This document shows, piece by piece, positions 1-45,650 of a stretch of 64,000 nt of DNA. Origin of the DNA: Arachis hypogaea (lineage: Eukaryota > Streptophyta > Magnoliopsida > Fabales > Fabaceae); assembly GCF_003086295.3 (NCBI RefSeq), contig NC_092050.1, positions 153,642,699 to 153,706,698 of the forward strand, read 5' to 3'. Position numbers and translations under genes: made by a program. Positions within the stretch are counted from its first letter, which is position 1, and each line of letters begins with the position of its first letter. The notes under the pieces are model-generated. The model was not told the origin of the DNA. It made no database searches and was given only the letters and a program-made list of their open reading frames with translations.

Positions 1-1770
1 TTTCTGTGATTATATTTGTCTTGTGGATATGATGGTTTGTTGGACTGAATTATTGGGTGTTTGATTGCTTGAGTGAATTACGGTTGTTGATAAGAAATGG
101 ATTTGGAAAGTCATTTACTTGATTATTATGAAAAGTGGTTTTTTTCTTGGTTTGAAGTTAAAGTGGTTTGATTTTGAGTCGGTCTGATTTTATAAATAAT
201 TTAATACTTGAGCTGGTTTGACTTTAAAAAGAGTTTTATTATTGGAATTGCTCTGATTTGAAAATACTTTGATACTGGAATTGGTTGAATTTTGGAAAGT
301 GATTGAGATTTGGAAATGATTGAGAAAGGATTTGAGAAATGTTTGGATGGGACCCGAAAAGGGTGGCAGTGTCCGAGTTTTAGAGGAGATGCTGCCGAAA
401 TTTTATAAAATTGGAAGTTTTGTTTGAAGTAATTGTCTAAAAAGATTTGGTTCTTAAACGCTATTTGTTTCAGATTGATTTATTTAGAAAGGAAAGAATT
501 ATGTTTTGAATTGAGATTGTTGATTAACGGGAAGAAGGATGATGAGGATTGATTTGAAATATGATTTTTAAATGAATTTAGAAATGGGATATGGATTGAT
601 GAATGATGATGATATTGAGAATGGCTTAGATATTGATGAATGATGAATGAATTATTTATATGGCTTATGAATTTGAAATATCTGAGATACGAGGTTCCCT
701 GGATTAAGTGCCGTGGCTTGCCACCACGTGTACCAGGTTGAAAACTCGATACTCTGTTGACCCTACGACGTAAGTGTGACCGGGCACTATATAAATTCCC
801 GGGAATGATACCCCCATTGAGTATTATTGATTATTTGAGAAAAAGCTATGCATAGACTCTTGGGGATGCACGTCGGGGGACAGTCTAAGGACAATTCAGA
901 CTTGTCGGGTTGGCTGGATAACCGACAGATGAGCCTCATCAGCCATAGGACAGGCATGCATCATATGCATTTGTATGCTTTGCTTGGGTTTGAACTTGTT
1001 TTGGTTTGCCTAATTGCTAAACTGTTCTTAACTGCTACTTGAACTATTTGCTGTAACTGCTACCTACTTGTGCTTTCCTTGTCTGTCTTGTCTGTGTTTG
1101 TCCTGGCGTGCTACATTTGAGAATAAACTTTGGTGCTGAATTAATGATTGTGTTGTTTGATTATGTGGTTGGTTTCTGATTGAGATTTTCTTCTAAGAAA
1201 TGAAAGGTTTCGGATTTCTAAAAGATTAAACATTGTTTCTTTGAAAAGGTTTTGAACGATTTCCTATCGGTTTTTAAAAGATTCCTAAGGCATTGATAAT
1301 CACTGAGCTTGAAAACAGTTTTCTTATTGAATATCTTCTTATGACAACTTTGAAACTCTGTGGTGAGACCATGTGGTTAGGTTCTCACCCCCCTACAGTT
1401 TTACCTTTTCAGGAACCGGGTGAAGAAGCATTAAGAAGAGTTATACTGCGTTTGGTTTATAAGATGTATTAACTAGATATTTTTTTCCCCTCGTCTTTGT
1501 TATTACAAGTTTGTAAGAGGGATAGGAATTGTATCTTTTATATGTATATTATGAGTTATTATGTAAGGAGTCTTGTATATGAATCTATGCCTGTTTGTAT
1601 TTTTTTTTCTTAAAGATAAAGTGTTTATTTTTGGTTTTCTAAGAAATCAGCGATACAGTGTCAAGTCACAGGCTCCTATTTTAGTATTTAGTATATAAAG
1701 TAGTCGTAATACTTCTTCCTATCAGAGTGGCGCAGCCGGAAGCGTGACTTCTGATAGTGAGGGTGTTACA
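1..1770 (+). mobile_element. 5' LTR (3' part only) of a large LTR retrotransposon
   Basis: This stretch repeats at 6995-8765 and appears identical wherever I compared it, except for one extra T in a T-run near 8594. It ends in TGTTACA and is followed three bases later by a tRNA-iMet-type primer binding site. The LTR start lies outside the window: the complete 3' LTR is about 3.83 kb, so about 2.06 kb is missing. A TATA-like TATATAAA sits at 788-795 (7782-7789 in the 3' LTR) and is a plausible LTR promoter. The near-absence of differences means the insertion is very recent. Confidence 0.93.
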
Positions 1771-1773
1771 TTA

Positions 1774-1785
1774 TGGTATCAGAGC
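1774..1785 (+). other. Primer binding site, tRNA-iMet type
   Basis: TGGTATCAGAGC lies three bases after the LTR end. It is the classic complement of the 3' end of plant initiator tRNA-Met, used to prime minus-strand DNA synthesis. Its position fixes the LTR boundary at 1770. Confidence 0.92.
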
Positions 1786-4700
1786 GGTCTTTCCTGTAGA
1801 GCCTGAAGAATGGATCGATTATGCTTCAATTGCATACTCTGAGAGTCTGTCATGTAGTAGGTCTTGTTTGAATAACGAGAATTAGAGCTTATGCACATGA
1901 CGGTCTATTGAATAATGCCATTAGTCTTGCATTGCATAATCCCTGGTATTAAGTTTGGCCAGCTTAACACTAGTGAATTATGTATATGTAACCACTAATG
2001 GGTTATCATAGACAATATGCGAGTCATGGGTAATGCGAATTGCGGGTTTTGGGAACGTTAGGAGTTAATTCTCGAGGTTACTCGGTTAGGTTTCTTGAAC
2101 TCTGCGAATATCACGTATCTTGTTCCTGCTTGGTATGCTCTAAGGTTCTTGTCTGCGATACTTTTCTTGGAAAATGAACAGATTATCTTTCAATCCTACT
2201 CTCGTTCACGTACGCTTTTGTTTGATCCTAACTGCATATGCCTGTTTAAAACCCTTGGTGTATTTACCTTCTTTATTTAGGCACTTCTTTTTGAATCATG
2301 TATTTTTTTTTATATATACATTTGAATCTGTTTTGATGCAGGACACCTTTTTAAGTTCATTTTTCGAGTCCCTTGTAAATAAATTGTAATTTAGTTTTCC
2401 TCTTTTTTTATAATAATTACAGCCATTCTTTAAATCTTAACAAAACTGTTTTTGATTTAAAATATACAACCGCTTTTAATTTGATGTGTACTTCTTTATA
2501 TAAATGTTGAAAGTTCCTTATATAGTTTAAAACTAGTTGTTTCCAATACCTCGCCTGTTTTTTTCACTGATTTATGGAAATGTATATATACTTCAAATAC
2601 AATTTGATTTTCTAACAATTTTATTACAGTTTTTACGAATATCCTGATTTGACTATATATTTAGATATTTTTCAAAGAAAGGTTTTTGTCTCTTTCCAGT
2701 TGGTTTTGTTTGGTAAGCTTTACCTAATTTATTTTTTATTCGAATTTGGTTTAGCATACTATATTATTTATGCAATTGTTGTTCTTACAAAAAAAAATGT
2801 TGGACTCATGTCTTTATTCTCATGAATGGATCAATTTCTTTCTTAAACTTTTATTTCTATGGATGTCATATTTAATTATGTTTTTAACTACTCTTTTATT
2901 TATTTTTTTAACGTCATCATTAGTCTTAGTTTTCCATTTTTTGTGAATCTCATTCTCATCCGAGTCAACTTTAACTCGTTTCTATCTAATGCACCATTTG
3001 TCCTTTTACTTGTCTTTCTTTAGTCAAAGGTTCTTTCTTGAGAATTCTCTATTGATTGAGTTTTCTTCCTGGCGCGTTTTGTATTCCTTTAGACCAATTG
3101 GAAACTCATTTGATAATCTATACCCAGTGAGTTCTTGTTTGAATTCCCTTAATTTAAAGGTCCTTTCTTCCATAGGTTGATTTCATTTTAAGCACATCGT
3201 GATCTTCTTAAATGATACTTGCGAGGTGGTTATTTCAAATATACTTTCAGAATTTTGTTTTGAACCATTTTTAAGAAGGTTTTGAATTCTTTTGAAGAAA
3301 TTTAAGTTTTGAATCAACTTTTTTAAGTTGTTAAGTTTCTTCTTAAGCTTTTTGTTTCTATGAGTGACATGCTTTATGAATCCTAATTGAAATCCTTTAA
3401 TTTAAGTCCCTTTCTTCAAATGAGTTAGTTTCCTTTTTAGCACATAATAATATTATTGAACATCCTTATAAAGTTGTGACTTCAAGTATATTATTGAGGT
3501 TTTGTTTTAAACCTTTTTAAACAAATTTCGATTTATTTTTATGCAAAGTTGTCCCTGATTAGAATTGCTTTACTTGAGCAGTGCCTCTCTTTGGTATGAT
3601 TTGAACTTGTTTTGGGGCGATACATCTATTGAAGTTTTAATAAAATCGCTTTCAATTTAGCTTACACTCCTTTACCTTATACTCTAAAAATTTCTATGTG
3701 ATTTAAACCTGTTTGATTGTAATGCATCATCTTTTCTTTTATGAGTAAAACTTTATCTCAGATTTTCTTCCAACAAGATTATAGTTTTCATACATGCTTA
3801 AAAAAGAAGAGAAAGTACAATTTTGCGCTTAGCCAAATTAATCTTTCCATTTACAAAGTTTGTGTAATCTATTTCCACTTGAATTTATATTGAAATAATA
3901 CCACATTTATATTTTTATTACTCTTTTGAAGGACGTTTGTTACCCATTTTCTCTTTAGAACATGAAATGATTTCCCCTTAAGTTTTCATTCTTTACGAAC
4001 AATGCATTTGAAAATATTTTTAACCATACTCTTGAGTTCTATAAACTTTGTCTTTGGTTTGGATATACTTCTTCTGCAAACCTCATATTTACTGGTCTCA
4101 GCTTGAATTCGTTTCAAAATACTGCATTGTTTTTCATCTTATTGGTCTTATTAAATTCCTTCGATTCAAGAGTTACCTTTAAAGTTATCAGTTGATTCTC
4201 TTTCCAGCACTTTTTATTACTTGTTCATCCTTGTCTACTTGTGATTTTCACAATTCTTTCAAATTCTCGCGAACACGGTCGTTGTTACTGTTCTTTCTTT
4301 TCTATGGTCTATTATCCTTCTGAATATACTCGAGATTAGTTTTGGTATCTTGTGCGACCGTTAGACTTAGTAAATGACACATTAGTCCTTTAGGACACGT
4401 TTGATGAACGTAAAAGGTAAAATTCGTAGAGGTATGACATCACAGGGAGTTGTGAAACCTTGTTTTACGAGAAAGAGTTATGTTGATGTGGGACTTATGA
4501 CCAGTAGTAAGGTTTGCAAAGTGTTTAACAAAGTTGAGAACCCTCGGGTGAATTGATCGATGAAATACGATTAAGAATGGTAGAGATGAGTTATGTTGAA
4601 AGTTGAATAGTTGAATATCTGAGTTGGTGCGAGATCAGTGAGTGAATGTTAAGCACGTCGTTTTGACCCCAGCCTATTTTATGACCTATCCCCACCTTGT

Positions 4701-4921
4701 CTTACCACTACATGTTTGAACCACGTCGTCATTTGCATCAAGCTTGCTTTGTAATTTCTGTCTTGCGATTGCACTCCTACCCTTATATCTTTATGCTATG
4801 TGGTAAACAAAGTATTTGAAACTATATAAATATGAATGCTAAAGTTTTTTTGCTTTTTACAGAGTGTTAACCATGTAATGTATTTTGTAATACACTAATT
4901 TTCGAGGACGAAAATTTTTAT

Positions 4922-4934
4922 AAGTGGGGTAGGG
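4922..4934 (+). other. Polypurine tract
   Basis: A G-rich purine run (AAGTGGGGTAGGG region) sits directly before the 3' LTR start TGTAAGACCC. Reverse transcriptase uses such tracts to prime plus-strand synthesis. Confidence 0.75.
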
Positions 4935-7900
4935 TGTAAGACCCAAAAATTTTGAAAAAAATTTTATTATGAGCCAATTTTAAATTTATTTATTTATTAG
5001 AGATTTTATTTTCAGAAATTATTTCATTAAAAATAATTAAATCAGATTTTGATAATTAAAATATAAATTTTACTTAATTTCATTATTATTGAATAATTTT
5101 CTATACTTAAATTATAAAATTTAGCAGTCGTAAAAGAATAAATTTTATATGATTTAGTTTAAATAATTGAGATTTTAGAATTTAATATTTTAATTTCATA
5201 AAAATAAATTATATCATCTCTAATTTTAAATTAAGATACTTGATTAAAATCTAATTAGCAAATTGATAATTAAGTAATATTTTTTTTTTAAAGTAATTTC
5301 AAGGGATTAAATTAGATTTCGAATTAATAAAATATACCCTAATTTGATTAGAATTACCAAATCCTAATTAACCCAAATATTCCCAAATTAAACCCTAAGC
5401 TTCCTAATACTAACAGCACCGCCACCACCATCCCAAAACCCTCAACCACTCACCCCTTTCACCAAAACAAAACAAAAAAAAAAGAGAAAAAGAAAGAAGA
5501 GGGAGAACAGAGAAGGGACAGAGAGGAGAGGGGGAAACTGAGAAGAAAAAGTGGGAAGAGAGTAAGAACGCGCTGGCGCGCGGAGGGTCTTGCTGCCGCC
5601 GTCGCTGCTAGTCCAGCCGCATGCGAGAGAGAGAAGGTTCGCAGATGAAAGGCGCAACGGGACGGAAGAGGACCCACGCCCTATCGTCACCGTTCACGAG
5701 GGCCACGAGCCGCGTCGTTGTCGCTGAGGAAGGAAGGAGCACGAGCTTCCGTCACCATCGTCGCCGGCGATGCCGCGAAGAGGAGAGAGAGAGAGATCGG
5801 GCAGAGGGAGAACGATTCGCGCCGCCAGCTGCGTCCGCGGGAGGAATCGCCGCCGTTCGTGTCTCCTGTCGCTGTCAGCTTCGCGCCGAGCTCCCATGGC
5901 TGTCGCCGCTGAAGCCTTCACCGTCCTTGCCGCTGGAGCTGGTCACCGGAAGAGAGGAGGTGACGGTGGTGGGAGTTGCCGTTACTGTTCTATCTCTGCT
6001 CATTGAAGGATGCTGAAAAATGCTATTGCAGTTGCAGAAGGACGCTCTTACCATTCCAAACCCCATCTGGTTCTAATTTTAGTACTGACCCGATTTGTTT
6101 AGGCTGGTTTCGGTTCTTCTGAGTGCTGGAATTGCCGCCGCTGTTCCGTTTCCATGGGTCCCCTAATTACAGTAAGCTATTTTTCATTCCGAACATCCAT
6201 AATCGTCGTTCTGTTATAAGTTACTGAGGAATTTATGGTGGTATTTGTTATATAATTGAGTTTCGGTTATTATGTGTGCGATTAGAGTTGCTGTGCTTGC
6301 CGGGAGTTGTCACTGAAGCTGTTGGGCCCGCCGGGGTTGCACCCAGGTTGCTGCTGCGTCGCCGGAGACCACAGCTAAAGCCTCTGTCTTCTTGGGTTTC
6401 TATTTTCGTGAGTTACTTAGTTATATGTCGTCGCCGAAACCAGGCCAGATTTACTGGTAACTGTTTCTTCCTTTCTTGAATTTGTTCTGCTTCTATTTTG
6501 TTCCAGTATTCTTATTATTGTTGGTGTCTCTGCTGCCTTAATCGCTCGGAGTGATGTTACTGCCGTTAGGACGGATGCCCGGGTTTGATTTCTGTTTTTT
6601 TTTCTGTCGCTGGGAGCAGATACCAGAGCTGTTCTTAATGATTCGGGTCGGGTATATTTTTCGATTCTAGGCTGTTTACATATTTTACTATCTTTTCCAT
6701 GCTTGTTTTGATTTGATTTTTGTATATGTCTTTGTCTGGGTTTCTTGAAACAGTTTCAACTACTGTAATTGCAATTTGTAATAATGCAATTTGTAATAAT
6801 GCGATTACTATAAGAGGCGCTAGAGTTGTTGCTATTCTCGTGGGATTAACGTTATCGCTACTGCCATGAATTAAAAGGAAAGGGGATTATCACGATAAGT
6901 TACGCGGACTCAGTTAATCGAGGTAGGGGTTTTTCTTAAAATCTAATTTATATTACAGAGTTGTGATAAATAGATATTGATGCAAAAAGATATATTTCTG
7001 TGATTATATTTGTCTTGTGGATATGATGGTTTGTTGGACTGAATTATTGGGTGTTTGATTGCTTGAGTGAATTACGGTTGTTGATAAGAAATGGATTTGG
7101 AAAGTCATTTACTTGATTATTATGAAAAGTGGTTTTTTTCTTGGTTTGAAGTTAAAGTGGTTTGATTTTGAGTCGGTCTGATTTTATAAATAATTTAATA
7201 CTTGAGCTGGTTTGACTTTAAAAAGAGTTTTATTATTGGAATTGCTCTGATTTGAAAATACTTTGATACTGGAATTGGTTGAATTTTGGAAAGTGATTGA
7301 GATTTGGAAATGATTGAGAAAGGATTTGAGAAATGTTTGGATGGGACCCGAAAAGGGTGGCAGTGTCCGAGTTTTAGAGGAGATGCTGCCGAAATTTTAT
7401 AAAATTGGAAGTTTTGTTTGAAGTAATTGTCTAAAAAGATTTGGTTCTTAAACGCTATTTGTTTCAGATTGATTTATTTAGAAAGGAAAGAATTATGTTT
7501 TGAATTGAGATTGTTGATTAACGGGAAGAAGGATGATGAGGATTGATTTGAAATATGATTTTTAAATGAATTTAGAAATGGGATATGGATTGATGAATGA
7601 TGATGATATTGAGAATGGCTTAGATATTGATGAATGATGAATGAATTATTTATATGGCTTATGAATTTGAAATATCTGAGATACGAGGTTCCCTGGATTA
7701 AGTGCCGTGGCTTGCCACCACGTGTACCAGGTTGAAAACTCGATACTCTGTTGACCCTACGACGTAAGTGTGACCGGGCACTATATAAATTCCCGGGAAT
7801 GATACCCCCATTGAGTATTATTGATTATTTGAGAAAAAGCTATGCATAGACTCTTGGGGATGCACGTCGGGGGACAGTCTAAGGACAATTCAGACTTGTC

Positions 7901-8765
7901 GGGTTGGCTGGATAACCGACAGATGAGCCTCATCAGCCATAGGACAGGCATGCATCATATGCATTTGTATGCTTTGCTTGGGTTTGAACTTGTTTTGGTT
8001 TGCCTAATTGCTAAACTGTTCTTAACTGCTACTTGAACTATTTGCTGTAACTGCTACCTACTTGTGCTTTCCTTGTCTGTCTTGTCTGTGTTTGTCCTGG
8101 CGTGCTACATTTGAGAATAAACTTTGGTGCTGAATTAATGATTGTGTTGTTTGATTATGTGGTTGGTTTCTGATTGAGATTTTCTTCTAAGAAATGAAAG
8201 GTTTCGGATTTCTAAAAGATTAAACATTGTTTCTTTGAAAAGGTTTTGAACGATTTCCTATCGGTTTTTAAAAGATTCCTAAGGCATTGATAATCACTGA
8301 GCTTGAAAACAGTTTTCTTATTGAATATCTTCTTATGACAACTTTGAAACTCTGTGGTGAGACCATGTGGTTAGGTTCTCACCCCCCTACAGTTTTACCT
8401 TTTCAGGAACCGGGTGAAGAAGCATTAAGAAGAGTTATACTGCGTTTGGTTTATAAGATGTATTAACTAGATATTTTTTTCCCCTCGTCTTTGTTATTAC
8501 AAGTTTGTAAGAGGGATAGGAATTGTATCTTTTATATGTATATTATGAGTTATTATGTAAGGAGTCTTGTATATGAATCTATGCCTGTTTGTATTTTTTT
8601 TTTCTTAAAGATAAAGTGTTTATTTTTGGTTTTCTAAGAAATCAGCGATACAGTGTCAAGTCACAGGCTCCTATTTTAGTATTTAGTATATAAAGTAGTC
8701 GTAATACTTCTTCCTATCAGAGTGGCGCAGCCGGAAGCGTGACTTCTGATAGTGAGGGTGTTACA
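4935..8765 (+). mobile_element. 3' LTR, complete, about 3.83 kb
   Basis: It starts TGTAAGACCC and ends GGGTGTTACA, giving a TGTAA/TTACA inverted terminus. The last 1.77 kb duplicates window positions 1-1770. The first half is AT-rich, followed by a GC-rich island (about 5400-6100) with overlapping short ORFs in several frames. None of those ORFs resembles a known protein, and I treat them as chance products of GC-rich DNA. The five bases after the LTR (TTACT, 8766-8770) are the expected target duplication, whose partner lies outside the window. Confidence 0.9.
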
Positions 8766-9110
8766 TTACTAAGCCTCCACATCACAAGAAAAATGAGTTT
8801 TAGGCTTTTAGCAATAAATTTTTAGCAACAATAACGTAATAATCACTGTTTTTTTTATTTAAGTTATGTTTTTATGGCTATTATATATTTGCCATTAATA
8901 CTATATATTATAATGACAATTATTATTATTATTGTCACTAAAAAATACATTAAAAAAAGTTTAAAAACAAAATTTTAGTGACAATTATATATTTGACACT
9001 ATTATTATATATTATAATAGTAATTATTATTGCAACTAAATTATTATTTATTTTAACTTTTTGTTTTAAGTTTTTTAAATTAATACTGACAATTATTTAA
9101 TTGTCACTAA
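8766..9110. repeat. CACTA left-end module, copy A
   Basis: About 345 bp closely matches 10939-11270 (copy B), including TGACAATTATTATTATTGTCACTA-type subterminal motifs. Copy A abuts the 3' LTR on its left and the telobox-Myb array on its right. The two modules therefore bracket the array as direct repeats. Confidence 0.8.
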
Positions 9111-10937
9111 GAAGAAAGAAGAAGTAGACGCCCTCACTCGAGACGTCGAAGAAACATAAACCAAGCAATTGGAGGAATATTTTAATACGACCTGGCTTCA
9201 CGTGACAACAAACAACTCAAGGTAAAAATTCTAGAAAACTGAGTCTAAGAGTTTATGGTTTTTAATTTTTGTTGTTTTGTGTAATCGAGGATAAATAGAG
9301 AAAAATTTCTTAATACACAATTTTGAATGTTTAAGAATGGTTGTGTTAAATTTAAATAATATGTTTGAGGAACTTTTACAAATATAGTGTACTCTTTATG
9401 TACTTTCATCCCGTTTGATATCTTAGAATTGTCATTGAATTTGGTTAATGTTGCTGTTGTATTATCGTGCAGTAAAATGCCTAAGCAGAAGGAGAAATAG
9501 AAGAAAGAAGAAGTAGACGCCCTCACTCGACACGTTAAGAAACATACATCAAGCAATTGGAGGAATATTTTAAATGATCCGAAATTTGCACACACCTGGC
9601 TTCACATGACATCCGGTAAGAGTCTAAGAGTTTATGGTTTTTAATTTTTGTTGGTTTGTGTAATCCAGGATAAATGGAGAAAATTTTCTTAATACAATAT
9701 TTTGAATATTTAAGAATGGTTGTGTTAAATTTAAATAATATGTTTGAGGAACTTTTACAAATATAGTGTACTCTTCATGTACTCTCATCCCATTTAATGT
9801 CTTAGAATTGTCATTGAATATGATTAATGTTGCTGTTGTATTATCGTGCAGTAAAATGCCTATGCAGAAGGAGAAATAGAAAAAAGAAGAAGTACATGCC
9901 CTCACTCGAGGCGTCGAGAAACATAAACCAAACAATTGGAGGAGTATTTTAAATGATCCGGAGTTTGCACACTACCTGGTTTTACGTAACAAACAGCTCA
10001 AGGTAAAAATTCCAGAAAACTGAGTCTAAAAGTTTATAGTTTTTAATTTTTGTTGTTTTGTGTAATCCAGGATAAATAGAGAAAAATTCCTTAATACACT
10101 ATTTTGAATGTTTAAGAATGGTTGTGTTAAATTTAAATAATATGTTTGAGGAACTTTTACAAATATAGTGTACTCTTCATGTACTCTCACCCCGTTTGAT
10201 GTCTTAGAATTGTCATTGAATTTGGTTAATATTTATGTTGTATTATCGTGCAGTAAAATGCCTAAGCAGAAGGAGACGCTCTCACTCGAGGCGTCGAGAA
10301 AGATAAACCAAGCAATTGGAAGAATATTTTAAATGATCCAGAAACAGCTCAAGGTAAAAATTCCAGAAAACTGAATCTAAGAGTTTATGGTTTTTAATTT
10401 TTGTTGTTTTGTGTAATCTAGGATAAATGGAGAAAAATTCCTTAATACACTATTTTGAACGTTTAAGAATGGTTGTGTTAAATTTAATTAATATGTTTGA
10501 GGAACTTTTGTAGATATAATGTACTCTTATCCCGTTTGATGTCTTAGAATTGTCATTGAATTTGGTTAATGTTGCTGTTGTATTATCGTGTAGTAAAATG
10601 TCTAAGTATAAGGAGAAATAGAAGAAAGAAGTAGACGTCCTCACTCGAGGGGTCGAGAAACATAAGCCAAGCAATTGGAGAAATATTTTAAATGATCAGG
10701 AGTTTGCACACGACCTGGCTTCACGTGACAACAAACAGCTCAAGGTAAAAATTCCAGAAAACTGAGTATAAGAGTTTATGGTTTTTAATTTTGTTGTTTT
10801 GTGTAATCCAGAATAAATGGAAAAAAATTCCTTAATACACTATTTTGAATGTTTAAAAATGGTTGTGTTAAATTTAATTAATATGTTGGAGGAACTTTTA
10901 CAAATATAATGTACTCTTCATGTACTCTCATCCTGTT
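9110..10937 (+). repeat. Tandem array of five decayed telobox-Myb (TRB-like) gene pieces
   Basis: Five copies of a 340-400 bp unit. Each holds an exon-like piece starting ATG-CCT-AAG-CAG (ATGs at 9477, 9856, 10258 and 10598; the first copy lacks its start). The exon is bounded by GTGCAG upstream and CTCAAG/GTAAAA downstream. A short intron-like stretch follows, ending TAATCCAG, and then GATAAATGGAGAAA. Read through the splice, the product carries KPSNWR, ILNDPEFA, QLK and then DKWR, matching the N-terminal Myb domain of plant TRB/SMH telomere-repeat-binding proteins (family knowledge). The copies that keep the start share a TAG where a tryptophan codon is expected, and other copies have indels. 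These are dead fragments, probably captured by the transposon and then amplified. Confidence 0.72.
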
Positions 10938-10938
10938 T

Positions 10939-11270
10939 ACATTACTAAGCCTCCACATTATAAGAAAAATGAGTTTTAGCAATAAACTTTTAAAAACAAT
11001 AACGTAATAATCACTGTTTCTTTTATTTAAGTTATATTTTTATAGCTATTATATATTTGTCATTAATAGTATATATTATAATGACAATTATTATTATTGT
11101 CACTAAAAAATACATAAAAAAAAGTTTAAAAACAAAATTTTAGTGACAATTATATATTTGACACTATTATTATATATTATAATAGTAATTATTATTATTG
11201 CAACTAAATTATTATTTTTTAACTTTTTGTTTTATTTTTTTAAATTAATACTGGCAATTATTTAATTTCC
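10939..11270. repeat. CACTA left-end module, copy B
   Basis: Near-duplicate of 8766-9110, starting ACATTACTAAGCCTCC. The fifth Myb unit stops abruptly at 10938 in the middle of its intron-like part and joins this module. It continues into the body of the CACTA-like element. Confidence 0.8.
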
Positions 11271-12143
11271 TAAATTGCAAATCCATCGAAGAAAGAAAGA
11301 ACCCTTGTCTCCGATAACCCATTCCCTGAAAACCCACTCTATCTCAACTTTTTCCACTGACAACCACCTACTACCACCGTCCCGGGCCTTGCCATCATCG
11401 ACGATCGCCACTTATCATCCTACACGCACTTCTGTCTTCCTGTTTCCACGCTCGGCCTCAAATCTAGGTCAAATCCGTGCCAGATCCACTCAGATCCGCG
11501 TTGCTGTTCTAGACAGCGAACAATGTTACCGTTATCGTCTCAGTCGTTGTTGCCCTCGCCGTCATAGTCGCCAACCTTTGTTATTTTCGCTGTCACATTT
11601 GCCCTTCATTAATGCATCGTAGCAATTCGTTGTAGCAAGTAACTCTTATGCGCATTCTCTTTACTTTGATCCATTTCGTTTTGTTTTTATTTTACTTTTG
11701 CCTATGATTTGATTTGTGTTTCTGTGGTTGTTTGAAGTGAAAATACACATTCTCTTTATTCTCACTATTCAAATTGATGTGTTTAATTGCTTCATTTATT
11801 CAGTATAGTTTCATAATTTCTCTTTATTTGTGTCTATGCGCTTGTTTAATTGCTTGAATATTATGTTTGATTAATATAATTACTATTTAAATTTGTGATT
11901 TTAGATACATTACCACTATATTGTGCAATTTGGTGTATTCATGATGATAGTTCTGTTAGTAGCATTTTTATATGATGGGTTCAAGTTATTTATCATAGAT
12001 GATAGATAGATAGGTAATTAAATCAATACCTGTCTAGGACACAAGATTTTCCGGTAAAATAAGTTCAGAGTTAGTTATCATAGATGATAGATAGATAGAT
12101 AGATAGGTATAAATTGCTGGTAAAATGGATTTTGACAACAATA
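11271..12143 (+). other. CACTA element body: C-rich 5'UTR-like stretch and GATA microsatellites
   Basis: A GC-richer block (11275-11640) with a 115-codon open frame is followed by AT-rich intron-like sequence. The frame has no recognisable domain; its Ser/Pro/Arg-rich composition looks like a captured 5' untranslated leader. Two short (GATA)n/(TAGA)n tracts occur near 12000 and 12085. No gene is supported. Confidence 0.4.
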
Positions 12144-12151
12144 GTAATGGC

Positions 12152-15100
12152 TAGGGGTGTTCAAAACCGATCCAGACCGTACTGAAAAAATCGAAAACCG
12201 AAAAAATCGAGAAAAAAAAAATGTGTTTTGCAGTTTTTGCGGTTCGGTTTAATTTTCAGTTCTGACCAGGAAAACCTAACCGAATCGAACCGAACCGGTG
12301 GAGTAAAAAACCCTAAAAAACCAACCCCAGCCCACCCCACCCCAATTCCCTTGAGCGCGAGTCCTGAGCCCTAACCCCACGCCTCCCACCCCAACCCCAA
12401 TCGAAAGCTCTCAGCCTCTCACAGTCGCGCTCTCCTCTCACAGTCGCGCCGGTGCACCTAGCCACTGAGCCACCCATGTTTTCTACAGTCGTGCTCTCCT
12501 CTCACGAAGGCGAACCCACGTTCCTCCCAGTCTCCCACCACCTCGCAGCGGACAGAACGAAGCCCCAGCCACAGCTTGAACGACCCTCGTCCTTCGCACC
12601 AGCAGTAGCAGAGCACGACCCAGTCACCGATTCAAAAGCAGCATCCGCCAGTCACCAATCAACACAGCACCCACGTTCCTCCCGGTCTCCCACCCAGCCA
12701 CCGATTCAAGTTAGATATGGAGTCCGAGCCACCGAGTCAGGTATGTAATTTGGTTAAATCATTGATTAATTGTTGCTGTTTGTTGTTATTGGTGTTGTTT
12801 ACTAGTGTAAAACCTGATTTTGTTTAACCTTGCTATTGGTATTGTTTGCTATTGGTATTTTTGACCTTATTGTTACTGTTAATTTGGTTAAATTATACTC
12901 AACATTGGTATTGTTTACTTTATTGTTCATATTATTGTTTGTTGATTCATTGTTGTTGACTTGCTATTTGTTGAATCATTGTTTGCTGTTTGTTAGGTAA
13001 TGTTCAGTTTGTTGAATTATTTTAATCATTGCTGTTTATTGATTCATAGCTGGTTATTGATTCATTTATGCAGTTTGATGTCAGTTCAATTGAAAATATG
13101 GGCGACACTGGATTGCCGCTAGTTCCTCTGCTGAATGAATCAACAAGCATCAGATCTTCAACTGCATTGCCTGCTGTGCCAGCTCCTCATAGAAACACAA
13201 GGAAGCTTGCTAGTAGAGGCCGAGGGAAAAGGCGGGGTGTTGAAGAAGCTCCTGTTGATGACTCCGCTGAAACTGAGACCGGCGAAGGTAAGAGAAAGCC
13301 TTGTAGACCTAGGTCTTGGACATGGGATCACTTTACTAAAGATGAAACTAGTAATCCACAGTACCCTAGAGCTAAATGTAATTGGTGTGGGGCTAGTTAT
13401 GCTTGTGATACACATAAAAATGGCACCAGTAACATGAAAAATCACTTGTTGTCGCAATGCAAAAAATTTCCAAAGGAGGCATTAGATCCTACCCAAAAGA
13501 TTCTTTGTTTTCAAGATGCGATAAAAGATGATAGGAAAGGGATAGGTAGTTTACTTTCTGCTGTATCTTTTGATGTTGATCGTTATAGACAAGCGCTTGC
13601 TAGAATGATTATTGTGGATGAATTACCTTTTTCGCATGTTGAGGGGGAGGGTTTCGTTATTATATGAGTTGTTTGCAACCCAAGTTTCCAATTTCTGGAA
13701 GGCTCACAATTGCTAGGGATTGTTGGAAGCTTTATTTGAATGAAAAAATTAAGTTGAAGTCTGTTTTTAATCAACCAAATCAAAATGTTTGTTTGACAAC
13801 TGATTGTTGGTCATCTGTGCAAAACTTGAACTACCTTTGCCTTACTACTCATTACATTGATGTTAATTGGAAACTGCAAAAAAGAATCTTGAATTTTTGT
13901 GCTATCAAGAAAATGATCCAGTGCTTTCAAGCATGGCTGAGAAAATGAAGTCCAAGTATGATTAGTATTGGGGAAATATAAAAAACACAAACATGATGAT
14001 TTTCATTGCAGTGGTTTTTGATCCTAGGTATAAGCTTCAATTAAGTGGGATTTTGAAAAGTTGTATGAAAAAGAAGATGCTGAATTCTTGACTTCAAAGG
14101 TAAAGGAGACTATTTTCAAGGTGTTTAATAGCTATAGGCTGTTTGGTGGGATTGGTAACTATCAAAGATCTACTCACCAAGATCCTCCTAAAATTGGCAC
14201 ACAAGAGCTTAAGGCACATGAAACTTCTTTTGCTATGAAATTTGAGAAGAAAATGCAATTCAATGAGAATGTTAACAAGAATGAGGTGGAGTTATATCTT
14301 ATGGAGGCCTTAGAGAAGAGTGGCATGCAATTTGACATTCTAAATTGGTGGAAAGTGAATTCCACTAAATATCCAATTTTTGGGCAAATTGCAAGAGACG
14401 CCTTAGTCATGCCAGTTTCCACAGTTGCTTCAGAATCGACATTTAGTACTAAAGGAAGGGTATTGAATAATTATAGGAGTTCTCTAACTCCAATGACAGC
14501 TGAAGCGTTAATTTGTACACAAAATTGGCTCCGAAACTCTCCAAAACTTGTTCTTGAGGAACTCATCGAGGAATTGGAGAAGTTGGAATTAGGTATAGTT
14601 AAGCTTCGACTTATAAGTTTCTTTATTTTAATCTAGTTTTTATTTATATATATAATTTGTTATGATTATTTCTTGTTTTATATATTTTGTAGAAGTTGCA
14701 CCCACTCTTGACCCTAATGAAGAAGATTCTGGTGTTGAGTCTGATTGAGTACATCTTGTTATGGTATGAATTGTTCTCTTTATTATTAGAATATATAACT
14801 AGATTAGAATGTTTTTCTACTAGTGTTATATTATTATTATTATTGTTGTTCTTATTATGTAACTGCTTTTTTATTTCAGGTTGGTTTACGTTAAGTTTAG
14901 CTGTTTTATTCGAGAAGACACCATAACTTGGCTATCTTTTAATGGAATTTTATTTTTATTTTCAGTTCTGTTGACTGTTGAACTTTTAAACTTCTTTAAT
15001 TGTTGTATTTGAATTCCTTTTGTCGTTAAATTTCATTAGACCAAGACTTTGTTAGCTATTGTGTATTTGTGTTGGTCGATTTCAATGTTATGAATTTGTA

Positions 15101-15231
15101 AAATAGTATGGTAGTATTTTTTTGAATTGATTGAAAAAACCGAACCAAACTGAACCGCAATTTAATTAGATAATCGGATCGGATGACTTTTTCCTCAAAA
15201 ACTGAACCAAACCGTACCGCGAACACCCCTA
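12152..15231 (+). mobile_element. hAT transposon, 3080 bp, nested in the CACTA-like element
   Basis: It begins TAGGGGTGTTC and ends GAACACCCCTA, 11-bp perfect terminal inverted repeats. An identical 8-bp duplication GTAATGGC flanks both sides (12144-12151 and 15232-15239), as expected for hAT. Subterminal stretches are rich in AACCGAACCG-type repeats. Removing one duplication and the element restores a continuous CACTA subterminal sequence, proving the order of insertion. The transposase inside is broken. Confidence 0.95.
12717..14748 (+). pseudogene. hAT transposase (BED zinc finger, RICESLEEPER-like), frameshifted and internally deleted
   Basis: Exon 1 is 12717-12740 (MESEPPSQ), joined in phase to exon 2 from 13074; exon 3 is 14693-14748 and ends ...EDSGVESD-stop. 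Exon 2 encodes a BED zinc finger (KCNWC...H...C, about 13370-13460), then the region around the first catalytic Asp (TTDCWSS). It ends with a well-kept hAT C-terminal dimerisation domain (PVSTVASESTFST, RSSLTP, ALICTQNWLR; 14330-14540). Frame breaks occur near 13655 and near 14040. Between about 13895 and 13910 the sequence jumps from the early core to the FDPRYK region, so most of the central catalytic domain is missing. It cannot make an active transposase. Confidence 0.88.
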
Positions 15232-15501
15232 GTAATGGCCACTAAAAGTGAATAACATTGCAATTTTAGAATTACTTTTGGTGGCCGTATAAATTACCAA
15301 GAAAATGGCTACTAAAAGTTATATACTTTTTATGGCCATTAAAAATGTCTTTACCGGCAAATATTATAATTGCCGCTAAAATCTTTTAGCGACAAAGCAT
15401 AAGACGGCTAATATATAATTGCCGGTAAATGTATTAGCGACTATTTTTATTGCCACTAAAAGCAAAATAAATGGCCACTAAAAGTGATTTTTCTTGTAGT
15501 G

Positions 15502-16570
15502 TCAATAATGCAATTAAGCATTTATCTCCTCTACGTTTGCTCTCAGTTTCTCTCAATCTTAATGTTCTAGTTCTGTTCCTTTGAACCTGGATTTGATACA
15601 TTTATGGTATCAGAACTTCTATAACAGAAGGTTTATATATGGAGTTGCCACAAATTTGAGTTTTTTCAGCAACCTCACCACTCAAGTCTTAAATTTTGGA
15701 AGCAATGCGACTACACTAAAGAGAGCATTTCACTAAGAATGGAAAGCAACATTTGAGAATTCTAAAATTGGATTATGCTTATAGCTTTTAAGCTGTTTTA
15801 CTTCTTCTCTTTCATGGTTATTCATTGAACATTTTGTTTTCTTCAGTTTATCTTTCTTTGTTTCAATTAATAGAAAAATACGTTTATCTGAGGTATTAGA
15901 AAAAAGCCATTGAGAAAAAAAAACAAAGAGTCTAGCTTGGAGAAAAGCCAAAAATTATGTCATTATTTTTTTATAATCTTTTCTGTTTTGTTTCTTGAAC
16001 CTAAGATTTTTCTTACTAAGTTGGGTAAGCATTTAGTGTTGAGAGTCTGAAGAGTGAACCTAGTCAAATCAAGATTGGTCAGAAGTTTCATTTGTTCAGT
16101 ATTGGATAGAATTCTTGGGAATTAGTGTTTGTAATCTTTGAAAAGATTATGAAATCCTACCATAATTATGGTGGAGATTGGATGTATGCCACATTGCACA
16201 AGATGGTTGAACTATGATACATGACTGTACTTTTTTCTCCTTTGTTTTATTTTTGTTTCATTCGTTATGAGACAAAATTAAATTGTCTTTTACATAATTC
16301 ATCTCGTAGATACAACAAAATTAATGTTGTAGAATTTGGCTTACTATTCAAGTTTAAAAGCATAAAAAGAGGCCGTGATTCAACCTCTTTTCTCTAGGCC
16401 ATTCAAAATATTCAACTAAAAATATTATCATATACTAAATTTAGGTTGCTCTTTATTACACTTTTATTTTTTTCAACTTTATTTACTTTTTTATTTTATA
16501 TTTTAATTGAATTTTCTTTTGTATATTATTTTATTTTTTAATTGCCTTTTGATTTTATTTGTTTATTATA
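15502..16570. other. Intergenic, with a possible retrotransposon scrap
   Basis: A primer-binding-site-like TGGTATCAGAAC occurs at 15605-15616 after a sequence ending GATACA. This hints at the last bases of a copia-type LTR, but no partner LTR or coding region is visible. The rest is AT-rich with no supported gene. Confidence 0.35.
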
Positions 16571-30336: not shown

Positions 30337-30831
30337 ATGAGCATGAGCATGAGCAGCAGTAGCAGTTACCTAACAAGGGCGTGTTCGCCTTCATCCTCCG
30401 TGAGCGTCTCCCCTAACTGCACTTCTTCATGGATGATTCTCCCCAAGAACCCTCTCTCACTCCCTCAACCCTCACGCGCCCTCTCACTCCCAACCCCCAC
30501 GCGCCGTCCCCTAACCGGCCTCGTCAGGTGCGAGGTCGCAGTTCAACTCTCTTCTCAACAAGACGAAGAAGCAGAAGAATCTTCCAAGGTCAGCAAGGTC
30601 GGTGCGCGCGTTAGGGTGAAATCGCCGCTCAAGGTCTATCATGTTCCCAAGGTTCCGGAGCTCGATCTCGACGGAATGGAAGGTCAGATCAAGCAGTACG
30701 TAGGGTTATGGAACGGGAAGCGAATCTCTGCTAACTTGCCTTATAAGGTTGAGTTTGTTACGGAAATTGAAGGACGTGGCAAAGTGAAGTTCTTCGCGCA
30801 CCTCAGGGAAGATGAATTTGAGTATGTTTAG
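30337..30831 (+). CDS. FTRV: Ferredoxin-thioredoxin reductase, variable chain, chloroplast
   Basis: A 164-residue protein from one exon. It is the non-catalytic subunit that pairs with the Fe-S catalytic chain of FTR in the chloroplast stroma. The dimer passes electrons from photosynthetic ferredoxin to thioredoxins. Residues 1 to about 70 are Ser/Pro/Arg-rich with almost no acidic residues, a typical transit peptide. A short acidic linker (DEEAEESS) follows, then the conserved SH3-like barrel: KVGARVRVK, PLKVYHVPKVPE, GMEGQIKQYVG, GKRISANLPYKVEF, and the ending EDEFEYV. The start has three in-frame ATGs in a row (MSMSMSS); the first is taken. The family is usually encoded without introns in plants. 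Confidence 0.95.
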   Translation: MSMSMSSSSSYLTRACSPSSSVSVSPNCTSSWMILPKNPLSLPQPSRALSLPTPTRRPLTGLVRCEVAVQLSSQQDEEAEESSKVSKVGARVRVKSPLKVYHVPKVPELDLDGMEGQIKQYVGLWNGKRISANLPYKVEFVTEIEGRGKVKFFAHLREDEFEYV

Positions 30832-39727: not shown

Positions 39728-41239
39728 GAGTAAAGTAGGGTGCACGTGGGCCGGGTGAAGCTGGGTTTGATGTGACCCAGACTCGACTCGAAATATACAT
39801 CGGGTCTATTTATTAGACCCGAACCCGACCTTAGACCCGATGAAACCAATACACTTTCGGGCCACAATTATACCGGGTGAAAACTGGGTAAAAACCGGGC
39901 CGTTAACATTACATTACGTTGATACCTTCTTGTAAGCTAGCATGAAAAAATATCCAAATTTTCAAGACTCCAACCATTATTTAACATGGTAAAATTCACT
40001 TAGAAAAATATAACAAGAACCAACCCTTCTTTAAAATTAAAGCATAACCACAATCAATACTAAAGCAAAACCACAATCAATACTAATATTGTCTAATAAT
40101 ACCAAATATTTAAATCAATACAAATAACACAATATTATGCATTAGTCTAAAGTCCTATGCATTCTAAACATAAAACATTAACTTATAGTCTTATAATGAC
40201 TAATAACAAAAAATATTCAAGTTTACAATACTTAAATTCCACATAAGAATAGTCATGATCCATCACTAATAACACAAAATATTAATTGTGTATGATGACC
40301 GGGTCTATTTTTGAGACCCTTACCCGGTCCTAAACCCGATGAAATCACACCAAATTAGCCCCTAAAGTGTTCGGGATTGGGCCGGGCCTTCGGACCGGGT
40401 CGGGTCTGTGCACCCCTAGAGTAAAGTATTGATTTTGTTCCTAATGTTTAAGATAAGTCTCAAAGTTATTCTTAATGTTTCAATTGTCCTATTTAAGTTC
40501 CTAATGTTTCAAAATTGACTCAATGTTGTCCTGCCGTTAGGAATCCGTTAACAGAATTGACGGCAGGACAAAATGGAGACGATTTTGAAATGTTAGGGAC
40601 TTAAATAGGACGAAAACGTTAGAGACAAAAACGATATATAAAAATAAATTTTAATTTAATTTTATCTTTTAATAATATTAATTTTTTACTGTACATAGTA
40701 TTCAATTATTTTTTAATTACATCTAAATAAATTACACTTAATCACATTACTTTTATTTTAAATAAATTTATTTTTTTATAATTTTAAAAAATTTTGATAC
40801 ATTAGAGACAAAAGGTATAATTTATATTTTATTATATATATATTATTATTTTTTTTTCTGCAAGTTTATATACTAGTCATTCTATAAATATTTTATGATA
40901 ACTAAAAATCTTTAAGAGTAAAATTATAAAAAAATTAATTTATTTAAAATGAAAGTAATATGATTAAGTGTAATTTATTTAGATGTGATTAAAAAATAAT
41001 TGAATACTATGTATAGTAAAAAATTGATATTATTGAAGGATAAAATTAAAATTTATTTCTATGTATCATTTTTGTCTCCAACATTTTCGTCCTATTTAAG
41101 TCCCTAACATTTCAAAATCGTCTCAATTTTTTCCCTCTGTCAGTTTTGAAACGTTAGGGACTTAAATAGGACGATTGAAACGTTAGGGACAACTTTGGGA
41201 CTTATCCCAAACGTTGGGGACAAAAACGATACTTTACTT
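39728..41239. mobile_element. Fold-back (long-TIR, MULE-like) element, interrupted by a hAT element
   Basis: Without the hAT insert the element is about 821 bp and nearly all palindromic. The left arm from 40427 (TAAGATAAGTCTCAAAG, GTCCTATTTAAG and so on) reappears inverted up to 41239. Each arm itself contains an inner inverted repeat (CCTATTTAAGT ... ACTTAAATAGG). A 9-bp duplication TATTAATAA flanks it at 39719-39727 and 41240-41248, suggesting the Mutator superfamily. No coding sequence. A transcript through it would form a strong hairpin. Confidence 0.82.
39736..40418. mobile_element. Non-autonomous hAT element, 683 bp
   Basis: It starts TAGGGTGCACGTG and ends GTGCACCCCTA, flanked by an 8-bp duplication GAGTAAAG (39728-39735, 40419-40426). 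The duplication is exactly the first eight bases of the fold-back element, so this hAT landed at its very tip. Subterminal GGGTC / GACCCG repeats are abundant. No transposase. Confidence 0.92.
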
Positions 41240-41248
41240 TATTAATAA

Positions 41249-42648: not shown

Positions 42649-45033
42649 TGTGAGGAAATTATTTTAATTTTTTAATTTATTTGTGGCAATGCATATATTA
42701 ATTATAATTATAAATTATACTCTTTCAACTTAAATGACTTATATAATGGTGATCTCATTTATTGTTATATATGCTAAATTGAATAAGTCATTATTACTTT
42801 TGATTTGAAATTAAATGAGAATAAAACCATATATTATCTTTTGTTCCTTAGATAATTATCTTTTGGATTTTAGATATATTATATTTTAGAATTTATATAC
42901 TATTTTTATTTGAGCTTTAGAGTTTAATGGGTGTCATGCTCAAATATAAATAGGCCTTCAGGGTTTCGGTCCCCAATATACCAAAATCGCATTTGTTGCT
43001 CTTTCCCCATCAAAAGAGTTACAGTTCAGCCACCTAGGAATACACAAAGTTTTGGTTGAGAAAGATCGAAAGAATCACAAAATCCAAATCCTTCCATCAA
43101 TTTCTAACTTTTATGAATAAAGGTACGCTTCCGCATTGTCTTATATTTTCATGATTCAATATGAATAATCTGGATTATTAAAATTAATTTATTCCAACAA
43201 GTGGTATTAGAGCTATCCATAATTTAATCATAAAAAATATTCAGTTTTATTTTTTTTTATTATTATCAAATCAATATATATATATATATATTGTTCACGT
43301 TATGAAATTGTTGCACGCACACGAACTTGGTCCGTATATACATACGAAATTGTTCTGCGTTGTGTGTGAGTGTCAATGTATATAAATTGGTTCGTATATG
43401 AAAGGCTTCCATATATATGCATTGTTTTTGTTTGCGTTGAACTCAGATTGCGTTCTCAGCCAATTTTATATACATGTATAATATATATATTATTCTTTCG
43501 ATTATATATATACATTTTTGCGTACCGATAGTGTAAAGCATGTTCCATTTTATTTTGTTTATAAAATTGATAATTTTTTTTGAAATATTGATGGAGTATT
43601 ATTGAATAATAATTGTCTAGGATCTAATTATGTATGCTATTAATTTAGTATACAATTGATTAATAATTCTTTTTGGGTTATAAGGATTATTATGTATATG
43701 TCACTTATGCGAATATTGATTTAGTCAAAAAAATATTTATATTTGGCCAAGTTATGAGTGTACATCAATAATATTTGAGTAATAAAAAATATTAATTGTT
43801 ACATAAAAAAATTAGTAACAATTTGGATTATTATACCCACTTATTTTATAAAGATTTGATTTTAGAATAAATTGATTGAACATTATGCTGCCAAAGTAAT
43901 CTCTTGTGAAAATTGATTTATTTAAAACATTAGGAATATGGTGTTATGTAATTCATGCGAATATTGGTCGGTCCAAAGGAAGGTCTATATTTGGCCGAAT
44001 TACATACAAATATTGATAGTAAATACATGTTTGGGTAACAAATTAAGAATAAAGTAATGCTTATTATTTATGCGAACAATAATCGGTCCAAAAGAAGTTT
44101 ATTGTTTGGCCAAATAATAAGCATTACACACTTTTGTTTATTTTCTATTAATTATGCGGTCAATAATCGGCCCAAAAGAAAGTTATTGTTTGGCCAATTA
44201 ATAGAAAATATATGCGGTAATAAATAGGTTGCGAAGTTTAAGTCTCCATGTGCGCATTAAGTCGGTCCAAAGAAAGGCTTCATTGTGACAGGAATTTTGA
44301 CAATATTTTATTACTGCAATGAGAGTATTACTTACAGTTAATTTTTCTATCCAAAGATTGAAAATTAATGTTGTTCTAGATATCTCAATATGGATTTTTT
44401 TCCATTATTTAACTAATGTTTACTGCATGTTTATTTGTTCTAATCCAGAAACTATGGTTTCAACTACCAATGTTTCTGCACAAATTAGCAGTATTCCTAT
44501 GCTGAATGCTTCAAACTTTAAAGTTTGGAAGGATACCGTGGAGATTGTCCTCGGTTGTATGGATTTGGATATAGCTCTTCGAGAGGAGAAACTCACTTTC
44601 ACTCCGGAAAACGTCAATGAGGCTAAAATAGAGAAGTGGGAGAGATCCAATCGAATGAGCATTATGATCATGAAACGCTCAATTCTTGAGACGTTTTGGG
44701 GCTCAATTACTGAGGATAAAGATGTCAAACAGTTTCTGAAAGATGTTGAAATTTTTTTTACTAAGAATGAAAAGGCAGAGGCAAGTAGTCTTTTGAGCAA
44801 ACCTGTCTCCATGAGGTATAAAGGTAAAGGAACATAAGGGAGTACATTATGAAAATGTCTCATCTTACTTCAAAATTGAAAGCACTAAAATTAGAGTTGT
44901 CTAAAGATTTACTCGTGCATTTAATTTTGATTTCCCTTCCTGCACACTTTGAACAATTCAAAGCGAGTTATAACACTCTGAAGGACACTTGGTCCTTAAA
45001 TGAGCTTATATCTCACTGTGTGTAAGAAGAAGA
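42649..45033 (+). mobile_element. Ty1/copia 5' fragment, left arm of a long inverted repeat
   Basis: The LTR spans 42649-43199 (starts TGTGAGGAAAT, ends CCAACA), with the primer binding site TGGTATTAGAGC at 43202-43213. A long leader with repeated stem-loop modules (43690-44300) and the start of gag follow. The element stops within gag, near 45033-45060; no protease, integrase or reverse transcriptase follows. The same sequence recurs inverted from about 45076. Confidence 0.9.
43690..44300 (+). other. Array of stem-loop modules in the copia leader
   Basis: At least three modules of about 60-75 nt share an apical core (TGCG..AATA.TCGG(T/C)CCAAA.GAA..TATTGTTTGGCC) but have different, fully complementary outer stems. 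These are ATGTAATTC/GAATTACAT (43946/44005), GTAATGCTTATTATTT/AAATAATAAGCATTAC (44054/44127) and TATTTTCTATTAATT/AATTAATAGAAAATA (44139/44210). Weaker relatives lie at 43690-43775 and 44230-44295. The same set recurs in the right arm (about 45830-46150). Confidence 0.8.
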
Positions 45034-45060
45034 GAGACTACAGCAAGATAAGACTAAAAG
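44454..45060 (+). pseudogene. Ty1/copia gag fragment, left arm
   Basis: The frame encodes a copia-type gag N-terminus (MVSTTNVSAQ..., FKVWKDTVEIVLGCMDLD, KWERSNRMSIMIMKRS), a UBN2-like region. It runs open to about 44836. A one-base loss there relative to the right-arm copy shifts the frame into a stop, and a second in-frame TAA lies at about 45024. Sequence beyond 44837 still resembles gag in another frame. Non-functional. Confidence 0.85.
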
Positions 45061-45063
45061 TGC

Positions 45064-45650
45064 TCACATGACTTCATCTTCTTGCACACAGTGAGATATA
45101 AGCTCATTTAAGGACCAAGTGTTCTTCAGAGTGTTATAACTCACTTTAAATTGCCCAAAGTGTGCAGGAAGGGAAATCAAAATGAAATGCACGAGTAAAT
45201 CTTTAGACAACTCTAATTTTAGTGCTTTCAATTTTGAAGCAAGACGAGACATTTTCATAATGTACTCCCTTATGTTCCCTTTACCTTTATACCTCATGAA
45301 GACAAATTTGCTCAAAAGACTACTTGCCTCGGCCTTTTCATTCTTAGTAAAAAATTTTTCGACATCTTTCAGAAACTGTTTAACATCTTTATCCTCAGTA
45401 ATTGAGCCCCGAAACGCCTCAAGAATTAAGCGTTTCATGATCATAATGCTCATTCGATTGGATCTCTCCCACTTCTCTATTTTAACCTCATTGAGGTTTT
45501 CCGGAGTGGAAGTGGGTTTCTCCTCTCGAATAGTTATATCCAGATCCATACAACCGAAGACAATCTCCACGGTATCCTTCCAAACTTTAAAGTTTGAACC
45601 ATTATAGGAATACTGCTAATTTGTGCAGAAACATTGGTAGTTGAAGCCAT
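45064..45650 (-). pseudogene. Ty1/copia gag fragment, right arm
   Basis: The minus-strand frame 45570-45064 (MEIVFGCMDLDIT...) carries the same gag region as the left arm, without the left arm's frameshift near 44836. The upstream part (45650-45571) is out of frame with it. It ends at the inverted-repeat centre, so gag is truncated and no downstream pol exists. Confidence 0.82.

What the first reader, a model, noticed from the sequence alone, without database searches (positions are those of the whole stretch)
9110..10937. Tandem array of decayed telobox-Myb (TRB/SMH-like) gene pieces inside a CACTA-like element
Five 340-400 bp units each keep an exon (ATG-CCT-AAG-CAG ... CTCAAG), a GT...AG intron of about 70-95 bp and the start of the next exon (GATAAATGGAGA). 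Spliced, they give ILNDPEFA...QLK joined to DKWR, the telobox signature of telomere-repeat-binding Myb proteins. Copies with an intact start share a stop at the first conserved Trp, so a dead fragment was amplified, or dead copies were homogenised. The array is bracketed by two copies of a CACTA left end. Gene-fragment capture by CACTA elements is known; local amplification of a telomere-binder fragment as a tandem array is, to my knowledge, unusual. Its transcripts could yield siRNAs against the parent gene.
Basis: partly seen in the sequence, partly recalled or inferred. Interest (0 to 1): 0.82.

Follow-up and report, generated by a model that had tools for sequence, protein, structure and literature searches.

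The report
Decayed telomere-binder fragments, tandemly repeated
Inside a degenerate plant jumping gene sits a row of five broken copies of the start of a telomere-binding protein gene; it is a real and slightly unusual genomic fossil, most likely without a function.

Summary
The array is real: 9110-10936 holds 4.8 head-to-tail copies of a 379-bp unit. [quoted passage not shown] A profile of 119 plant TRBs finds the consensus at E=1.7e-16 and three units at 8e-14 to 4e-8; of 5000 shuffles, the 4668 scored reach at most 12.5 bits against 55. Asp14 (4 of 5 units) leans to the TRB4/5 lineage; two other marks of that lineage are not met. The founder was already dead: Trp8 is a stop in 3 of 4 start-bearing units, and the consensus has lost 18 of 43 near-invariant residues of TRB1-like proteins. 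Exons differ more than introns (13.7% against 5.0%). The array lies between two left ends (13/323 substitutions apart) of one degenerate CACTA-like element with a right end at 15501 and a nested hAT. CACTA elements with gene fragments, and others with satellites, are published; a gene fragment that is itself the tandem array is a modest variant. Parent gene, genome copy number and small RNAs were not tested (genome search did not complete).

The parts
9110..9476 (+). TRB-fragment unit 1, 5'-truncated (no start codon); exon piece to 9221, intron 9222-9289, next exon piece from 9290 with its Trp codon a stop
   Evidence: weak alone in the profile search (E 0.05)
9477..9855 (+). unit 2: ATG 9477, stop in place of Trp8, exon piece to 9615, intron-like 9616-9668 (usual donor deleted), DKWR from 9669
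   Evidence: profile E 3.7e-8
9856..10257 (+). unit 3: best preserved; ATG 9856, stop in place of Trp8, exon to 10002, intron 10003-10070, next exon from 10071 with its Trp codon a stop
   Evidence: profile E 7.5e-14
10258..10597 (+). unit 4: ATG 10258, two exon deletions (one over the Trp8 codon), exon to 10353, intron 10354-10421
   Evidence: profile E 1.3e-4, in another frame than the ATG
10598..10936 (+). unit 5: ATG 10598, stop in place of Trp8, exon to 10744, intron 10745-10811; unit truncated at 10936
   Evidence: profile E 1e-11
8766..9109 (+). CACTA-like left end, copy 1, with 12 bp of flank shared with copy 2; degenerate terminus CACATCACAAG at 8778
10937..11271 (+). CACTA-like left end, copy 2, with the same 12 bp of flank (10942-10953); terminus CACATTATAAG at 10954; joined directly to array unit 5
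15240..15501 (-). CACTA right subterminal region and right end (CACTACAAGAAAAATCACTTTTAG on the - strand); candidate 3-bp duplication TCA at 15502-15504
12152..15231 (+). hAT element nested in the CACTA-like element: TAGGGGTGTTC ends, 8-bp duplication GTAATGGC (12144-12151 / 15232-15239), BED zinc finger and hAT dimerisation ORFs
1..8765 (+). LTR retrotransposon (left LTR cut by the window start; tRNA primer-binding-site-like TGGTATCAGAGC at 1774; right LTR from about 6995 to 8765, its last base inferred from the CA ending) abutting left-end copy 1
   Evidence: 0 substitutions and one 1-base gap over 1768 compared LTR sites

Best explanation
A fossil. A genomic piece of about 380 bp from a TRB-type gene, more likely of the TRB4/5 lineage (probably the end of a 5' intron, then first coding exon, intron, first codons of the next exon), lost its function, was amplified head to tail to about five copies and ended up between two copies of the left end of a degenerate CACTA-like element. 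Shown: TRB homology, intron-like stretch at the LK|DKWR border, tandem arrangement, stop shared by 3 of 4 start-bearing units, no sign of protein-level constraint, duplicated left end with 12 bp of shared flank. Inferred: that the piece was captured from a host gene; that the array formed before or about when the left end was duplicated; that the join arose by a copying error (template switch or microhomology-mediated repair; the 10-nt GAAGAAAGAA occurs at the join and in the interior of copy 2, but it is a simple purine run that chance could give). A hAT and a very young LTR retrotransposon also inserted. Most likely it makes no protein and has no function; if transcribed it would be handled as ordinary silenced transposon DNA.
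For: Profile of 119 TRB N-termini: consensus 55.0 bits, E 1.7e-16; the best of the six-frame window chunks that do not overlap the array has E 2.0; best scored shuffle 12.5 bits. tblastn of 120 full-length TRBs: 119 hit the array, best E 1.5e-7; best elsewhere E 0.42. Pfam Myb_DNA-binding 23.3 bits against a cut-off of 24.4. Asp14 in 4 of 5 units, the mark of the whole TRB_B lineage in PMC10167121 (section 20 read). Stop at Trp8 in 3 of 4. 18 of 43 near-invariant residues lost in the consensus. Divergence over pairwise sites: main exon part 13.7%, its first 21 sites 9.5%, intron 5.0%, remainder 7.3%. 49 of 81 changes from the majority sequence are C>T or G>A (counted), as in methylated repeats. 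Left ends 13/323 apart with 12 bp shared beyond the terminus.
Against: The parent gene was not found, so capture from a host gene rests on protein similarity and intron position. PDB search: the top hit was an unrelated Diaphanous protein (E 0.013), telomere proteins coming after it at 0.045-0.27. TRB_B marks at positions 3 (N) and 17 (L) are not met (K and T). The left termini are degenerate and the 3-bp target duplication is unclear. Array-before-left-end rests on few transversions (4/323 between left ends against 83/3226, pairs not independent, between units) and on different base composition (GC 17% against 31%).
Confidence: 0.82

Rival explanations
1. Overlaps with the best explanation, differing in the route: the units are a short sample of a dispersed satellite family that began from a TRB fragment and was picked up, already tandem, by the CACTA-like element, as reported for a 171-bp satellite in quinoa CACTA elements.
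For: Units are at least as diverged from each other as the left ends are, which fits a preformed array. Satellite arrays inside CACTA-like elements are published (PMC8978399, section 10 read).
Against: Only 4.8 copies here and no further copy found in the 64 kb at E up to 1e-3. The genome could not be searched.
Confidence: 0.25
2. Also a route: neighbouring-insertion capture as proposed for Pack-CACTA. Two same-orientation CACTA copies landed on both sides of a pre-existing dead TRB array, and the left copy lost its 3' part.
For: Two direct left ends enclose the array. PMC8903248 (passages) and PMC13317346 (passages) describe capture through neighbouring insertions.
Against: Both left ends share 12 bp outside the terminus and lack a canonical CACTA start, which two independent insertions would not be expected to share.
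Confidence: 0.15
3. The array is a source of small RNAs that lower expression of the parent TRB gene.
For: Intron-bearing gene fragment in an element with a methylation-like substitution pattern; that such elements can give siRNAs is recalled, not tested here.
Against: 18 of 43 near-invariant residues lost in the consensus, so long near-identical stretches to a working TRB gene are unlikely. The copies are direct, not inverted.
Confidence: 0.04
4. Chance or low-complexity resemblance with no TRB origin.
For: Pfam Myb models stay just below their cut-offs; the best PDB hit is an unrelated protein; two short-query protein searches found nothing.
Against: Profile, shuffle, alignment and tblastn tests, and a GT..AG stretch exactly at the LK|DKWR border.
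Confidence: 0.01

Closest known systems
Pack-CACTA / Pack-TYPE elements (PMC8903248, passages read)
   Same: DNA-transposon ends around an intron-bearing host gene fragment; neighbouring same-family ends in the same orientation
   Different: Here the fragment is a tandem array, the left termini are degenerate, and the left end appears duplicated together with its flank
Tgm-Express1 of soybean (PMC1947982, passages read)
   Same: CACTA element carrying gene fragments with introns and splice borders
   Different: Tgm-Express1 carries fragments of five different genes; here one fragment about five times
CACTA-like elements with satellite arrays in Chenopodium quinoa (PMC8978399, section 10 and passages read)
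   Same: Tandem array inside a CACTA-like element
   Different: Quinoa array: 32.5 x 171 bp, near the 3' end, no gene origin mentioned in what I read; here 4.8 x 379 bp, at the 5' end, gene-derived
TRB (single-Myb-histone) family, TRB_B lineage (PMC10167121, section 20 and passages read)
   Same: N-terminal Myb-like domain with LKDKWR, Lys5, Glu11, Asp14
   Different: Only the Myb part is present, with stops and deletions; no H1/5-like or coiled-coil part found in the window

Membership tests
TRB / SMH proteins | N-terminal telobox Myb-like domain | tested here: met
   Profile E 1.7e-16 for the consensus, three units at 7.5e-14, 1e-11 and 3.7e-8, unit 4 at 1.3e-4, unit 1 at 0.05; scored shuffles at most 12.5 bits
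TRB / SMH proteins | Central H1/5-like and C-terminal coiled-coil domains | tested here: not met
   tblastn of 120 full-length TRBs: no hit outside the array better than E 0.42; the few array hits beyond residue 80 that were printed had E 3.6-6.5
TRB / SMH proteins | Open reading frame | tested here: not met
   Stop at Trp8 in 3 of 4 start-bearing units; stops, frameshifts or deletions in all 5
TRB_B (TRB4/5) lineage | Acidic residue at position 14 | tested here: met
   Asp in 4 of 5 units, His in unit 3; criterion from PMC10167121
TRB_B (TRB4/5) lineage | Asn at position 3 and (partly) Leu at 17 in dicots | tested here: not met
   Lys3 and Thr17 in the consensus; criterion
CACTA element | Both ends begin CACTA as inverted repeats | tested here: inconclusive
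   Right end CACTACAAG intact; both left copies degenerate but identical to it at 21 of 25 positions
CACTA element | 3-bp target duplication | tested here: inconclusive
   TCA follows the right end; TCA lies inside the degenerate terminus of left copy 1, not of copy 2
CACTA element | CACTA transposase | tested here: inconclusive
   No ORF of 130 aa or more in 8766-15501 except the two hAT ORFs; shorter ORFs (40-118 aa, 11262-12248) were listed but not searched
Satellite family | Many arrays genome-wide | not testable with these tools
   The genome search did not answer in 14 tries

The most novel reading that the evidence does not exclude
The array is one member of a genome-wide satellite-like family born from a TRB4/5 gene fragment and spread by CACTA ends, whose transcripts still feed back on TRB expression or chromatin.
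Probability: 0.04. Interest if true: 0.65.

Novelty: new variant of a known kind. Interest (0 to 1): 0.28.

Why it matters
It joins two published habits of CACTA elements, carrying gene fragments and carrying tandem repeats, in one object: a gene fragment that became the repeat. It is a small concrete example of how a tandem repeat can start from coding DNA. I found no evidence of function.

Tried and rejected
Recent homogenisation: judged not supported on substitutions, although adjacent pairs share more 21-mers on average. Constraint on the protein: rejected, the exon diverges most. Origin of left-end copy 2 after the LTR-retrotransposon insertion: considered because TTACA, the LTR's last 5 bases, also stands before copy 2; rejected because the LTRs show no substitution over 1768 sites while the left ends differ at 13 of 323; the coincidence stays unexplained. 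Parent TRB gene or other TRB parts inside the window: none found. Other array copies in the window: none at E up to 1e-3. Protein searches with the 57-aa piece, alone or padded, found nothing; few words and length limits may explain this. A full-length TRB1 query then gave 1138 proteins, of which the best 120 were listed; 119 were used for the profile, one dropped because its N-terminus did not match my start pattern. The listed proteins look TRB1-like, so the TRB4/5 lean rests on one published mark and a recalled TRB4 start. Rfam and tRNA scans gave only one tRNA at 62.5 kb. Host species: a legume such as Arachis is my impression from recalled repeat styles; no call tested it. Paper searches: among the listed titles and abstract starts I saw no tandem array of one captured gene fragment in a CACTA, which is no proof of absence. 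The original Pack-CACTA paper (PMC6379663) is not held; I know it through the two papers cited.

Full report
Observation. The region 9110-10936 is a tandem array of 4.8 units, TRF period 379, with spacings of 389, 379, 380 and 359 in the exon register. Each of the 5 units has an exon piece, a GT..AG stretch and the start of the next exon.

Identity. Spliced, the units give MPKQKEK*KKEEVDALTRGVEKHKPSNWRNILNDPEFAHDLASRDNKQLK|DKWRKIP (majority letters). The Pfam Myb_DNA-binding model scores 23.3 bits, just under its cut-off of 24.4. In the PDB the top hit is an unrelated Diaphanous protein (E 0.013), followed by TBF1, TRF2, TRF1 and TRP1 at 0.045-0.27 and two ASXL1 entries. The N-termini of 119 of these made a profile that finds the consensus at E=1.7e-16, unit 3 at 7.5e-14, unit 5 at 1e-11, unit 2 at 3.7e-8 and unit 4 at 1.3e-4 (in a frame other than its ATG); unit 1 is weak (0.05). 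Of 432 six-frame window chunks searched with it, the best that does not overlap the array had E=2.0. Of 5000 shuffled consensus sequences 4668 were scored, maximum 12.5 bits against 55. tblastn of the 120 full-length proteins against the window: 119 hit the array, best E 1.5e-7; the best hit elsewhere was E 0.42. The alignment to the best listed TRB is gapless from Met over 56 residues with 29 identities; the Arachis stenosperma TRB1 gives 28. Asp14 fits the TRB_B (TRB4/5) lineage by the published criterion, while positions 3 and 17 do not. TRB4/5 parentage is therefore a lean, not a finding.

State. Before amplification the piece was already broken: 3 of 4 start-bearing units share a stop at Trp8, and the consensus has lost 18 of 43 residues that are near-invariant in the 119 TRBs (these look TRB1-like, so part of the loss may be lineage difference). 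After amplification the exon changed most (main part 13.7% of pairwise sites, its first 21 sites 9.5%, intron 5.0%, remainder 7.3%), and 49 of 81 changes from the majority sequence are C>T or G>A. No protein-level constraint is visible. Substitutions show no recent homogenisation; 21-mer sharing is somewhat higher between neighbours (adjacent 89, 65, 61, 34; non-adjacent 77, 60, 12, 26, 10, 36).

Surroundings. The array lies between two direct copies of a CACTA-like left end, 8766-9109 and 10937-11271, differing at 13 of 323 aligned sites plus 17 gap positions. Both share 12 bp beyond the degenerate terminus, which suggests that the end was duplicated with its flank rather than inserted twice. 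At the join of left end and array the stretch GAAGAAAGAA occurs in the array's exon and, after 14 extra bases, in copy 2's own interior; this hints at a microhomology-guided copying error, though a purine run of that kind could be chance. The matching right end stands at 15501. A hAT element with an 8-bp duplication is nested at 12152-15231. On the left, an LTR retrotransposon, with no substitution and one 1-base gap over 1768 compared LTR sites, ends at about 8765.

History, inferred. CACTA insertion; formation of the TRB array, before or around the left-end duplication (transversions 4/323 between left ends, 83/3226 over non-independent unit pairs, weak); hAT insertion, order relative to the array unknown; very recent LTR retrotransposon.

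Comparison. Pack-TYPE elements, Tgm-Express1 and quinoa CACTA-like elements with satellites cover the two ingredients separately (passages or one section read). I did not see the combination among the listed results of six paper searches. I rate it a new variant of a known kind, of modest interest, with no sign of function.

Noticed in passing
43368-46726: A 3.36-kb palindrome (self-complementary at 93%, centre near 45047) with an ORF in each arm resembling copia gag (Retrotran_gag_2 found by Pfam in one of the two); could give a long hairpin RNA.
   Followed up: partly
1-8765: LTR retrotransposon with no substitution between its LTRs over 1768 sites and only one ORF of 130 aa or more (131 aa, no Pfam hit) inside: very young and apparently non-autonomous.
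   Followed up: partly
8761-8765 and 10937-10941: TTACA stands before both left-end copies, although in copy 1 it is the end of the much younger LTR; unexplained, probably coincidence.
   Followed up: partly
15502-15618: DNA right of the CACTA looks like the end of an older LTR followed by a TGGTATCAGAAC primer-binding-site-like sequence, so the CACTA may have landed in an LTR (seen).
   Followed up: no
12152-15231: hAT element with separate BED-finger and dimerisation ORFs, TSD GTAATGGC.
   Followed up: partly
40417-41241: Imperfect 0.8-kb palindrome (74%), possibly a foldback element.
   Followed up: no
30337-30831 and 52956-54446: Ordinary plant genes: ferredoxin-thioredoxin reductase variable chain and a PPR protein.
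   Followed up: no
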